Shown: positions 27,950 to 31,300 of the stretch, in pieces
Position numbering within the stretch: the first letter of the stretch is position 1
How the letters are laid out: each line of letters opens with the position of its first letter
NCBI RefSeq assembly: GCF_003568865.1
Contig: NZ_CP031115.1
Location: 2,232,001-2,296,000, forward strand
DNA from: Rubrobacter indicoceani
Lineage (GTDB): Bacteria > Actinomycetota > Rubrobacteria > Rubrobacterales > Rubrobacteraceae
Direction: 5' to 3'
Length of the DNA: 64,000 bases
The notes under the pieces: generated by a model
Databases searched by the model: none
The model's input: only the letters and a program-made list of their open reading frames with translations
What the model was told of the DNA's origin: nothing
Position numbers and translations under genes: made by a program

Positions 27950-28975
27950 ATGACTATCAGTGAGCGGGATCTCGGTGTTGTTGACGCTGCGGAGTGGTTC
28001 CAGCATCGTTCATATGAATATACACAGTTTGATGTAGAGAGCCTGAGCCGCAGGAAATCCGAACGGGGCGTAACGGTAGATGCGGTGCTGCCGGGTCGGA
28101 ACGTGGCGGATACCATCGGACAGATAATAGATGAGATCGGATCCGTCAACGAACGCGCGGTGGCCGCAGCGGGAACCAGGCTGGTTGACCGGGTCATCGT
28201 CATCGACGCCGATTCGCCGGACGGTACGGCGGACGTGGCGCGCCGGGCCGGCGCGGAGGTCTTCTCCGAAAACCAGCTCATGCTCTCTCACGGCGGGGCG
28301 CACGGCAAGGGGGATGCGATGTGGCGCGCCCTCTCCGTTACCGACGGCGACCTCGTCATGTACATGGACACGGACACGAAAGATTTCCGCGACGAGCTTG
28401 TTTGGGGTGTGCTCGGACCGATACTGACCGTCCCACAGGTTCGCTACGTCAAGGCCGCTTACCGGCGGCCGTTCAAGAGCGGTGAGGAGGCTCAGGAGGA
28501 CGGTGGCGGCAGGGTTACGGAGCTGTCCGCCAAGCCGCTCTTCAACCTTTTCTATCCGGAGCTCGCCGGGTTCGTGCAGCCGCTCGCCGGGGAGTTCGTC
28601 GCCGACCGGGAGCTTTTCGGCTCGATCCCGTTTATGACCGGGTACGCCGTCGAGACGAACATCATGATAGACGTGCTGAACAGGGTGGGACTCGCCGCGA
28701 TGGCCCAGGTGGACCTCGGGACGCGCCAGAACCGGCACCAGTCGCTGCGCGACCTCTCCCGGATGTCCTACGCCGTGCTTCGGGCGGTCGCGAGGCGCAT
28801 GAGACAGGACGGACGCCTCGATATGAGCGCCGACAGGCGCGTCCCGACAAGCCTGCACCAGTTCTCGGACTACCTGCACGCCGTCGCGACCCCGGACGGC
28901 CTGAAGCTCAACGAGTACGTCGAGGAACTCGTCGAGCGGCCCCCGATGAACGATGTCCTGAGGAAAGCCCGCTAG
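27950..28975 (+). CDS. gpgS: Glucosyl-/mannosyl-3-phosphoglycerate synthase (GT81)
   Basis: 341 residues. A GT-A transferase of family GT81 that moves glucose or mannose from an NDP-sugar to 3-phosphoglycerate, the first step to glucosylglycerate or mannosylglycerate, both compatible solutes. The NDP-sugar fold starts near residue 44 (VDAVLPGRNVADTIGQII), with VIDADSPDGTADVA, the GKGDAMWRAL loop, the metal motif MDTDTKDF and a C-terminal acceptor region QNRHQSLRDLS. In Rubrobacter xylanophilus the GT81 homologue accepts both GDP-mannose and GDP-glucose (established knowledge), so donor choice is unresolved here. No phosphoglycerate phosphatase gene is adjacent. Three nitrile hydratase-like genes follow, the first 2 bp after the stop. 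Confidence 0.88.
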   Translation: MTISERDLGVVDAAEWFQHRSYEYTQFDVESLSRRKSERGVTVDAVLPGRNVADTIGQIIDEIGSVNERAVAAAGTRLVDRVIVIDADSPDGTADVARRAGAEVFSENQLMLSHGGAHGKGDAMWRALSVTDGDLVMYMDTDTKDFRDELVWGVLGPILTVPQVRYVKAAYRRPFKSGEEAQEDGGGRVTELSAKPLFNLFYPELAGFVQPLAGEFVADRELFGSIPFMTGYAVETNIMIDVLNRVGLAAMAQVDLGTRQNRHQSLRDLSRMSYAVLRAVARRMRQDGRLDMSADRRVPTSLHQFSDYLHAVATPDGLKLNEYVEELVERPPMNDVLRKAR

Positions 28976-28977
28976 GG

Positions 28978-29277
28978 ATGCGCCGCGTGAACGATGTCGG
29001 CGGCGACCCCGCCGGACCGGTCGACAAAAGCCAGCACGCGGTCGAGGATTGGGAGCTGCTCACGGACGCCATAACCATCGTTCTCGACAGGAAAGGTCTG
29101 AAGACAACAGACGAACACCGGCGCACCATCGAGGGCCTCTCCCGGTACAGGGAGCTTGCCTACTACGAGCGGTGGGCGGCGGCCACCGAGAGACTCCTTA
29201 TCGAGAAGGGCGTGCTCACGGAGAAGGAAATAGACAGGCGCGTCGAGAAGCTGAAACGGGTCTGGAGCGAGGAATAG
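28978..29277 (+). CDS. Nitrile hydratase/thiocyanate hydrolase-like subunit (beta, N-terminal half)
   Basis: 99 residues from ATG 28978, two bases after the gpgS stop. The sequence begins with VNDVGG, the conserved start of nitrile hydratase beta subunits, and continues with DWELLTDAITIVLDRKG and the helical YYERWAAATERLLIEKGVLTE region. In ordinary nitrile hydratases this half is fused to an SH3-like C-terminal domain; here that domain is the next gene. The separate form matches the beta subunit of thiocyanate hydrolase (scnB position) and three-subunit nitrile hydratases. Its stop overlaps the next start by one base. Confidence 0.82.
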   Translation: MRRVNDVGGDPAGPVDKSQHAVEDWELLTDAITIVLDRKGLKTTDEHRRTIEGLSRYRELAYYERWAAATERLLIEKGVLTEKEIDRRVEKLKRVWSEE

Positions 29278-29555
29278 TGCGGTTCTCACCCGGAGAGTCC
29301 GTCGTGGTTCTCGACCTGAAGAGACCCGGCCACGTTCGCACGCCGAGCTACCTGCGGGGCCGTTCGGGCAGGGTAGACCGCATCCTCGGAGAGTTTCGCG
29401 ACCCCGAGGACCTCGCCTACGGGGGCGACGGCCTGCCGGAGAAGCCGCTCTACCGGGTGGCGTTCGAGCAGCGGGAGCTGTGGCCGGACTACGGGGGCGC
29501 GTCCGGTGACCTGCTGTACGCGGACATTTACGAAGACTGGCTGGAGAGAACATGA
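29277..29555 (+). CDS. Nitrile hydratase/thiocyanate hydrolase-like subunit (SH3-like, beta C-terminal half)
   Basis: 92 residues from GTG 29277, overlapping the previous stop by one base. It carries the SH3-like barrel of the nitrile hydratase beta C terminus: FSPGESVVVLDLKRPGHVRTPSYLRGRSGRV near the start and the final LYADIYEDWLERT. In Thiobacillus-type thiocyanate hydrolase the same domain is the small alpha subunit (scnA position). It is needed for assembly around the metal subunit. Its stop overlaps the next ATG (ATGA). Confidence 0.82.
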   Translation: MRFSPGESVVVLDLKRPGHVRTPSYLRGRSGRVDRILGEFRDPEDLAYGGDGLPEKPLYRVAFEQRELWPDYGGASGDLLYADIYEDWLERT

Positions 29556-30166
29556 CCGGACACGATCACCCGCACCCCGAACTCCCGGCGTCTCCCTACG
29601 CTGTCCGCATCCGGGCGATAGAGCAACTGCTGATAGAGCGCGGCGTTCTCACCCGGGCGGAGGTTCGGGCTCAGATCTCCTACATGGAGGCTCGCTCCCC
29701 GGAGAACGGCGCGAGGCTGGTAGCGCGGGCCTGGGTTGATGAAGGCTTCAAGGCGCGGCTTCTGGAAGATACCAAGAAGGCCGCGCTGGAGCTTGGCATA
29801 GACGCAACGGGTCCCGTCGAGTTTCTCGTCGTCGAAAACACCCCGCAGGTTCACAACCTTATCGTCTGCACGCTCTGCTCCTGTTACCCGAGGGCGATCC
29901 TCGGTCGTCCGCCCGACTGGTACAAGAGCCTCGACTACCGTTCGAGGGCGGTGAGGGAGCCTCGCGCCGTGATGCGCGAGTTCGGCTTCGAGGTGCCCGA
30001 GGACATCGAAGTCCGCGTTCACGACTCGACCGCCGACCTGCGCTATATGGTCCTTCCGATGCGCCCCGAAGGCACCAAGGGCATGAGCGAGACGGGGCTT
30101 GCGGGCCTCGTCCGGCGGGATGACCTGATCGGGGCCACGATCCCCCTCTCGCCCGCAAAAGCCTGA
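29552..30166 (+). CDS. Cobalt-type nitrile hydratase alpha/thiocyanate hydrolase gamma-like metal subunit
   Basis: 204 residues. The metal claw VCTLCSC (about residues 108-114) has Thr after the first Cys, the cobalt-type signature (iron enzymes have Ser). Two of the Cys are normally oxidised to sulfinic/sulfenic acid. The next residues are YPR; canonical cobalt nitrile hydratases have YPW, and from memory thiocyanate hydrolase gamma has Arg there, lining an anion pocket, so thiocyanate or a similar anion is a plausible substrate. RPPDWYKSLDYRSRAVREPR follows as in the family. No separate metallochaperone/activator gene is visible. An intrinsic terminator closes the operon. Confidence 0.85.
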   Translation: MTGHDHPHPELPASPYAVRIRAIEQLLIERGVLTRAEVRAQISYMEARSPENGARLVARAWVDEGFKARLLEDTKKAALELGIDATGPVEFLVVENTPQVHNLIVCTLCSCYPRAILGRPPDWYKSLDYRSRAVREPRAVMREFGFEVPEDIEVRVHDSTADLRYMVLPMRPEGTKGMSETGLAGLVRRDDLIGATIPLSPAKA

Positions 30167-30184
30167 TCCGGGCCTGACAGTTCT

Positions 30185-31300
30185 CTAGGAGCCGGTGGTG
30201 CGGCGACCGGCTCGTTGTTTTTCCCGGGCCGGTCGCCGGGTGTCGGAACCACTTGCCTCCGTTCCGCCAAGAGGGAGAGGACCCTGATGTACGCCTCGCA
30301 CGAAGAGGGGCAGATCCCGACCATCGCCCCAGAGGAGCAGGACCGCGAGAAGACCGTAAATCGGGAGGTGCCCGACAAGCTCCGGCCAGGCGAAAACGGT
30401 CAGCGTCAGGTTCACCGGTACAAGGGCGATCAGGGCTATTTCCCTCGGAAAGATCCCAAGCAACAGGAACAGCCCGACCCCAAGCTCTACGGAGCCTGCC
30501 ATCAGGACAAAGACCTCGTCCGAGATCGGCAACCCCAGTGCCTCGACGAAGTTGAGCGGGTTCGACTCCAGAAAGGACAGCCCGAGCGGGATGTTGGCAA
30601 ACTTCTCGGTGAAGGCCACGACCACGAAGCTCGCCCCGACGCCTGCCCGGGCGGCCGGTATCGCGTAGCGGGCGAGCCTCTCCGGGGGTTCGAAACGCGG
30701 CAGCAGCAGCCGGTCAACCGAGAACGGTCCCCGCCCGGCAAAAAAGAAGAACGCCGCGAAACCGAGGTAGAGTACGTTGTCGAGCATCGCCTCGAAGCCT
30801 ACGAGAAAGACCCCCGAGACCCACAGCCCCGCAAGCCCGACCGCCGCGACCCGCGTCAATGCCCCGTAGAAAAGCGAGAGTGCGACGAAGGTCTCGGCGA
30901 ACCCGAGAAAGTTGGCCCCCACCCCCGGCAGGTCGTTGTCTACGGAGAAAAGCGTGCCCTGAACCCCGTTCACGAGAAGCGGCACCGCGATGTGTACGCC
31001 GAGGATAAGCGGAACCAGCGAGTAAAAGAAAGTCCACCGGTTCTCGAGGGCACCGAAGCTCTCCGGACCGGGCACGAAGCCGCGACCGCGCCCGAGGTAG
31101 AAGACACCCGTAACCGTCGTAGCCAGCAGCACGGCCCCGACAAGGAGCAGCGGCAGCGGCTGGAAGAACAGATCCCACCTGAGGGGAAAGGGCTCCGCAT
31201 TCTCAAACCACTTTACGTGGGCGAGGGCAGGGCTTGCAGCAGTGAGGCCCGAGACCACCGCCGCGACGAAAACCCCGATAACGACCGCAACCTTCGACAT
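30185..31300 (-). CDS. DoxX-like multi-pass membrane protein with signal peptide
   Basis: About 371 residues. A signal peptide ends SPALAHVKWF, so cleavage after ALA would leave an N-terminal His on the outside. Roughly nine hydrophobic helices follow, with DoxX-type segments (ARAGVGASFVVVAFTEKF, SVELGVGLFLLLGIFPRE). DoxX-like proteins are linked to quinone- and thiol-dependent redox chemistry in some bacteria; function here is unknown. Two starts are possible, TTG 31306 or ATG 31300. The protein's basic Arg-rich C terminus lies in the same DNA as the plus-strand terminator. It is convergent with the nitrile hydratase-like operon. Confidence 0.75.
   Translation of the reverse strand: MSKVAVVIGVFVAAVVSGLTAASPALAHVKWFENAEPFPLRWDLFFQPLPLLLVGAVLLATTVTGVFYLGRGRGFVPGPESFGALENRWTFFYSLVPLILGVHIAVPLLVNGVQGTLFSVDNDLPGVGANFLGFAETFVALSLFYGALTRVAAVGLAGLWVSGVFLVGFEAMLDNVLYLGFAAFFFFAGRGPFSVDRLLLPRFEPPERLARYAIPAARAGVGASFVVVAFTEKFANIPLGLSFLESNPLNFVEALGLPISDEVFVLMAGSVELGVGLFLLLGIFPREIALIALVPVNLTLTVFAWPELVGHLPIYGLLAVLLLWGDGRDLPLFVRGVHQGPLPLGGTEASGSDTRRPAREKQRAGRRTTGS
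30189..30222 (+). terminator. Intrinsic terminator of the gpgS operon
   Basis: Perfect 8-bp repeat GAGCCGGT / ACCGGCTC (30189-30196, 30206-30213), 9-nt loop, then GTTGTTTTT. It lies 23 bp past the last plus-strand stop, and within the last codons of the convergent DoxX-like gene. Confidence 0.82.

What the first reader, a model, noticed from the sequence alone, without database searches (positions are those of the whole stretch)
27950..30222. Osmolyte synthase coupled to a split, cobalt-type thiocyanate hydrolase/nitrile hydratase-like module
A GT81 glucosyl/mannosyl-3-phosphoglycerate synthase gene is followed by three genes with a 2-bp gap, a 1-bp overlap and a 4-bp overlap, then one strong terminator. 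The three are the N-terminal half of a nitrile hydratase beta subunit, its C-terminal SH3-like half, and a metal subunit with VCTLCSC. The order beta-alpha-gamma is that of thiocyanate hydrolase scnB-scnA-scnC. The residue after CYP is Arg, not the Trp of cobalt nitrile hydratases, which favours an anion such as thiocyanate. Coupling this chemistry to a compatible-solute enzyme is not something I know to be described. No activator gene is present.
Basis: partly seen in the sequence, partly recalled or inferred. Interest (0 to 1): 0.78.

Follow-up and report, generated by a model that had tools for sequence, protein, structure and literature searches.

The report
Activator-free three-part nitrile-hydratase-like enzyme
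Behind the gene for a stress-protecting sugar compound, this Rubrobacter-like bacterium carries three tiny genes for a cobalt enzyme that attacks carbon-nitrogen triple bonds; the pairing is an old habit of its whole bacterial family, but gene losses and moves suggest that the enzyme works on its own.

Summary
It is no quirk: 26 of 39 Rubrobacterales genomes carry the split module, 20 with mpgS directly upstream (19 within about 20 nt), under purifying selection.

The GT81 gene is the orthologue of Rubrobacter xylanophilus MpgS. Arg after CYP matches thiocyanate hydrolase (SCNase), but the beta position aligned with SCNase Arg90 is His; alpha scores under the SCNase cut-off (205 vs 291) and over the NHase one; SCNase's N-terminal extensions are missing. 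In the alpha tree the Rubrobacter clade (98/94) lies outside both canonical SCNase and NHase. Its anatomy fits the three-subunit, activator-free NHases (S. canus ScNHase, toyocamycin NHase); no known-type activator exists in this genome.

Coupling to the osmolyte is probably positional. The module is absent from 9 genomes keeping mpgS, is cut off from mpgS by an antisense hydrolase gene in two, and in two lives elsewhere; one of these keeps a broken copy beside mpgS.

Verdict: real, conserved, new variant of a known kind; substrate unproven.

The parts
27950..28975 (+). mpgS: GT81 mannosyl/glucosyl-3-phosphoglycerate synthase, 341 aa
   Evidence: Best PDB match 3f1y, R. xylanophilus MpgS, E 4e-158; NCBIfam NF010496 346 bits over cut-off 262
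28978..29277 (+). bN: stand-alone N-terminal half of NHase beta, 99 aa, 11.6 kDa; candidate maturation chaperone
   Evidence: PF21006 65.8 bits; matches SCNase beta residues 47-142; only NHase_beta_N protein over cut-off in the genome
29116..29124 (+). bN His47-Arg48-Arg49, aligned with SCNase beta Arg90-Arg91-Arg92
   Evidence: alignment of bN proteins
29277..29555 (+). bC: stand-alone C-terminal SH3-like half of NHase beta, 92 aa, 10.5 kDa, GTG start
   Evidence: PF02211 73.9 bits; matches SCNase alpha residues 36-125; GHVRTP arginine kept
29552..30166 (+). alpha: metal subunit, 204 aa, 22.8 kDa
   Evidence: PF02979 268.6 bits; TIGR01323 263.2 over 249.85; TIGR03887 205.4 under 291.45
29867..29893 (+). 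CTLCSCYPR: cobalt claw (Cys106, Cys109, Ser110, Cys111) and pocket Arg114
   Evidence: sequence; same motif in SCNase gamma
30189..30222 (+). hairpin GAGCCGGT/ACCGGCTC with T-rich tail, probable intrinsic terminator (overlaps the 3' end of the convergent DoxX-like ORF)
   Evidence: fold -18.7 kcal/mol, z -1.63; not called by the scan

Best explanation
bN, bC and alpha form a three-subunit cobalt enzyme of the nitrile hydratase/thiocyanate hydrolase superfamily, probably an (alpha-bN-bC)2 hexamer. It matures without a dedicated activator: as shown for Streptomyces canus ScNHase, the free beta-N subunit probably also serves as cobalt and subunit-swapping chaperone. The pocket has the SCNase-type Arg on alpha but not the second SCNase Arg on beta, so the likeliest substrate is a small polar or anionic C-N triple-bond compound (organic nitrile more likely than thiocyanate), used for nitrogen or detoxification. 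In this genome it is probably translated from the mpgS transcript; that linkage is inherited in Rubrobacteraceae but is probably positional, not a step in mannosylglycerate metabolism. Shown: gene anatomy, motifs, conservation, purifying selection, absence of recognisable activators, loss and relocation. Inferred: subunit assembly, cobalt, self-chaperoning, co-transcription, substrate.
For: Domain hits and intact claw. Masses 11.6/10.5/22.8 kDa and order bN-bC-alpha match ScNHase <anhD><anhE><anhA> at 10.41/11.35/21.33 kDa, whose genome lacks an activator and whose AnhD is metal and swapping chaperone (PMC7329996), and TNHase at 21.2/10/11.4 kDa, (alpha-beta-gamma)2 (PMC8574189). No second NHase_beta_N protein over cut-off in the genome. 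In 39 Rubrobacterales, activators over cut-off occur only in G031, G036 and G037, the three with a fused-beta NHase. Second beta-N/activator ORF: 43/48 Trp-type loci, 0/36 split-Arg, 0/20 Rubrobacter, 0/3 Toy-like, 4/5 SCNase-like. Rubrobacter alphas one clade, 98/94. dN/dS 0.04-0.21. Autonomy: module absent from 9 genomes with mpgS; antisense hydrolase between in G034 and G036; G035 has a broken remnant beside mpgS and an intact module elsewhere, and G018 has its module away from mpgS.
Against: No activity, metal or transcript data. Activator seeds came from Trp-type loci, which favours that group; a non-homologous metallochaperone (COG0523 type) was not excluded. Near-zero gaps across many genera could mean that coupling to mpgS matters in most of the family.
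Confidence: 0.6

Rival explanations
1. It is a true thiocyanate hydrolase: SCN- to carbonyl sulfide and ammonia.
For: Same subunit split and order as SCNase, same CTLCSCYPR motif; split-beta/Arg proteins, SCNase among them, lie across a well supported branch (100/97) from all Trp-type NHases; grouping with the SCNase clade not rejected, p-AU 0.198.
Against: TIGR03887 205 bits against cut-off 291; beta Arg90 is His here and Met/Leu in relatives; SCNase N-terminal extensions absent; no activator, while 4 of 5 SCNase-like loci have one.
Confidence: 0.22
2. Functional coupling: under nitrogen limitation the cell makes a nitrogen-free osmolyte (mpgS) and scavenges nitrogen from nitriles or thiocyanate from one transcript.
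For: Conserved near-zero spacing in 19 genomes; distances of alpha, bN, bC track those of mpgS, r 0.68-0.73. Mycobacteria accumulate glucosylglycerate in nitrogen starvation (PMC6608630) and M. smegmatis raises SCNase genes msmeg_6266/6267 in nitrogen limitation (PMC4617892).
Against: mpgS often without the module; module relocated or separated in four genomes; Rubrobacter osmolytes reported as independent of salt (PMC4148983); no enrichment of GlnR-like sites upstream of mpgS. The distance correlation also follows from vertical descent alone.
Confidence: 0.12
3. The module is decaying or inactive and persists by hitch-hiking on mpgS.
For: At least five gains or losses on the mpgS tree; a broken remnant in G035.
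Against: CTLCSCYPR intact in the Rubrobacter alphas examined; dN/dS 0.04-0.21; intact copies kept at new sites.
Confidence: 0.05

Closest known systems
ScNHase of Streptomyces canus (anhD-anhE-anhA; PMC7329996)
   Same: Three subunits from a split beta, same gene order, near-identical masses, no activator gene in the genome
Toyocamycin nitrile hydratase (ToyJKL, TNHase)
   Same: Three subunits of 21.2/10/11.4 kDa, (alpha-beta-gamma)2 (PMC8574189)
   Different: Antibiotic-pathway enzyme; pocket residue differs in the proxy loci
Thiocyanate hydrolase of Thiobacillus thioparus (PDB 2dd4)
   Same: Split beta, gene order, CTLCSCYPR
   Different: SCNase has beta Arg90, N-terminal extensions on beta and alpha, and an activator; this module scores below its family cut-off
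Co-type nitrile hydratase (e.g. Pseudonocardia thermophila)
   Same: Cobalt claw; alpha over the NHase cut-off
   Different: Single-chain beta, Trp after CYP, separate activator
Rubrobacter xylanophilus MpgS (PDB 3f1y)
   Same: Orthologue of the first gene over its full length
   Different: No neighbouring module was mentioned in the papers held; of the two genomes with MpgS nearest to 3f1y (95 and 98% identical) one has the module and the nearer lacks it

Membership tests
Thiocyanate hydrolase | Separate beta-N, beta-C and metal subunits in that order | tested here: met
Thiocyanate hydrolase | Cobalt claw CTLCSC followed by Tyr-Pro-Arg (gamma Arg136) | tested here: met
Thiocyanate hydrolase | Second pocket Arg, beta Arg90 (its role recalled from the literature, not read here) | tested here: not met
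   His47 in bN; Arg only in T. thioparus and mycobacterial SCNases
Thiocyanate hydrolase | NCBIfam TIGR03887 over cut-off | tested here: not met
   205.4 against 291.45; 11 other actinomycete genomes pass it
Thiocyanate hydrolase | Clade with T. thioparus gamma | tested here: inconclusive
   outside it in the best tree, but p-AU 0.198
Thiocyanate hydrolase | Hydrolyses thiocyanate | not testable with these tools
   needs enzyme assay
Canonical Co-type nitrile hydratase | Single-chain beta subunit | tested here: not met
   two ORFs in different frames
Canonical Co-type nitrile hydratase | Trp after CYP | tested here: not met
   Arg114
Canonical Co-type nitrile hydratase | Activator gene | tested here: not met
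Canonical Co-type nitrile hydratase | TIGR01323 alpha over cut-off | tested here: met
   263.2 against 249.85
Three-subunit activator-free NHase (ScNHase/TNHase kind) | Order beta-N, beta-C, alpha; about 10-12, 10-12 and 21-23 kDa products; no activator | tested here: met
   against PMC7329996 and PMC8574189
Three-subunit activator-free NHase (ScNHase/TNHase kind) | Same clade as ScNHase/ToyJ | tested here: inconclusive
   proxy loci L040, L047, L048 form another clade; the named enzymes were not available
GT81 MpgS/GpgS | Full-length homology to MpgS and NCBIfam cut-off | tested here: met

The most novel reading that the evidence does not exclude
A third functional class of three-subunit cobalt enzyme, distinct from SCNase and from TNHase/ScNHase, with an Arg/His pocket and a new natural substrate, matured by its own beta-N subunit, and physiologically tied in Rubrobacteraceae to compatible-solute synthesis.
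Probability: 0.15. Interest if true: 0.72.

Novelty: new variant of a known kind. Interest (0 to 1): 0.42.

Why it matters
It shows that split-beta members of the nitrile hydratase superfamily without a recognisable activator are not a Streptomyces curiosity but are found in Actinomycetota, Chloroflexota and Pseudomonadota, most with an SCNase-like Arg. That makes a testable link between splitting beta and losing the activator. For the Rubrobacter osmolyte field it records a family-wide but dispensable neighbour of mpgS. Activator-free NHases from heat- and desiccation-tolerant bacteria could also be of practical use.

Tried and rejected
Neighbours of split-Arg modules in other phyla, for a substrate clue: mixed (TPP enzyme, carboxyltransferase, FMN oxidoreductase, D-serine dehydratase-like, Amidohydro_2, FliG, aquaporin), no common partner. 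GlnR-like sites upstream of mpgS: no enrichment. mpgS beside the module outside Rubrobacteraceae: none in the 80 best named loci, and most of 15 such genomes have no close GT81 at all. Resolving the alpha placement by AU test: not resolved. Idea that G013 is the strain of the solved MpgS: 3f1y is 97.6% identical to G014 and 95.2% to G013, so dropped. A mannosylglyceramide role for the enzyme was considered and dropped: an NHase makes amides from nitriles, not from acids. Structure prediction was not run: single-chain models would not settle the pocket, which lies between chains.

Full report
What is there. Pfam assigns Glycos_transf_2, NHase_beta_N, NHase_beta_C and NHase_alpha. The first gene is the orthologue of R. 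xylanophilus MpgS, PDB 3f1y, though NCBIfam names it GpgS; MpgS makes the precursor of mannosylglycerate, which R. xylanophilus and R. radiotolerans accumulate irrespective of salt (PMC4148983). The hairpin after alpha is a plausible but not statistically striking terminator.

How conserved. NHase alpha has matches in 27 of 39 Rubrobacterales genomes; G037 has only a fused-beta NHase of another type, so 26 carry the split type. MpgS-like hits are in 38 of 39. In 20 genomes mpgS lies directly upstream on the same strand; the gap is -1 to about 20 nt in 19 and 87-93 nt in G012. The wider order PBP, aminotransferase, HAD, surE, mpgS, [module], EF-G-like is shared with genomes that lack the module, including the same-genus G010 where only about 90 nt separate mpgS from the EF-G-like gene. 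On an mpgS tree presence changes six times, at least five by well supported branches. Pairwise dN/dS is 0.04-0.21 for the module genes.

Not always with mpgS. In G034 and G036 about 2.1 kb with an antisense GH63-like hydrolase and a phasin-like ORF separates mpgS from the module; the hydrolase is closest in the PDB to M. hassiacum glucosylglycerate hydrolase entries and then T. thermophilus MgH (the naming of those entries is from my own knowledge). In G035 the mpgS site holds only a frame-broken remnant of bN and bC, while an intact module of another lineage sits on another contig near an alpha/beta hydrolase, an SDR and a DUF427 protein; its sister is the G018 module, beside an alpha/beta hydrolase and a CMD protein and likewise not beside mpgS. 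These are the best evidence that the enzyme works without mpgS.

Which enzyme. By NCBIfam alpha passes the nitrile hydratase cut-off and fails the SCNase one; most relatives with split beta behave likewise, whereas mycobacterial-type SCNases pass. A residue-level comparison shows three classes: Trp-type NHases, mostly with fused beta; split loci with Ile/Leu (f19, Streptomyces-like genomes); and a broad, mostly split-beta class with Arg, which includes canonical SCNase. At the bN position aligned with SCNase beta Arg90, canonical SCNases have Arg, some of their nearest relatives Lys, this clade His or Met or Leu, other split-Arg proteins mostly Leu. From memory, Arg90 of beta and Arg136 of gamma are the two arginines that set SCNase selectivity; I could not read that paper here. 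Thus one of two determinants is present.

Activator. The genome has one NHase_beta_N protein over cut-off, bN itself. Over 39 Rubrobacterales, activators over cut-off occur only in the three genomes with a fused-beta NHase. Over all loci, a second beta-N/activator ORF was found in 43 of 48 Trp-type, 4 of 5 SCNase-like, and none of 36 split-Arg, 20 Rubrobacter and 3 Toy-like loci (seeds from Trp-type loci favour that group, and short contigs hold less flank). The ScNHase study (PMC7329996) gives the mechanism: without any activator gene, AnhD acts as both structural subunit and metal/swapping chaperone. By order and size AnhD corresponds to bN; this is inference.

Conclusion. A well conserved, activator-free three-subunit member of the NHase superfamily with a half-SCNase pocket, riding behind mpgS in Rubrobacteraceae. 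Ordinary in chemistry class, unusual in pocket and in neighbourhood. A function in osmolyte metabolism is not supported; a nitrogen-stress link is possible and untested.

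Noticed in passing
L089:8607-9995 (+), L090:6059-7447 (-): GH63-like glucosyl/mannosylglycerate hydrolase gene inserted antisense between mpgS and the module in G036 and G034; the own genome's homologue is far away (C1:1622725-1624020).
   Followed up: partly
L195:2189-2571 (-): Frame-broken remnant of bN and bC at the mpgS site of G035, while an intact module of another lineage sits on another contig (L194).
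   Followed up: yes
L127, L129-L131, L137, L139: Cyanobacterial NHases seem to have split beta yet keep Trp and an activator-like ORF, an exception to the split/activator-free pattern.
   Followed up: no
L185-L189: Mycobacterial-type SCNases over the family cut-off have the two small subunits fused in one ORF, with a weak beta-N/activator-like ORF after alpha in four of five.
   Followed up: partly
L118:298-867 (+): Two tandem beta-N domains in one ORF upstream of bC in a Burkholderiales module.
   Followed up: no
L120:5726-6947 (+): Rearranged order bC-alpha-bN in Glacieibacterium frigidum.
   Followed up: no
L091:7943-8948 (-): mpgS of G028 is split over two frames, with the module directly behind it; may be a frameshift or a sequencing error.
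   Followed up: no
window:29552-30166: alpha scores over the cut-off of the NHLP leader-peptide family (TIGR03793, 72 bits), as expected from the shared ancestry of that leader and NHase alpha.
   Followed up: no
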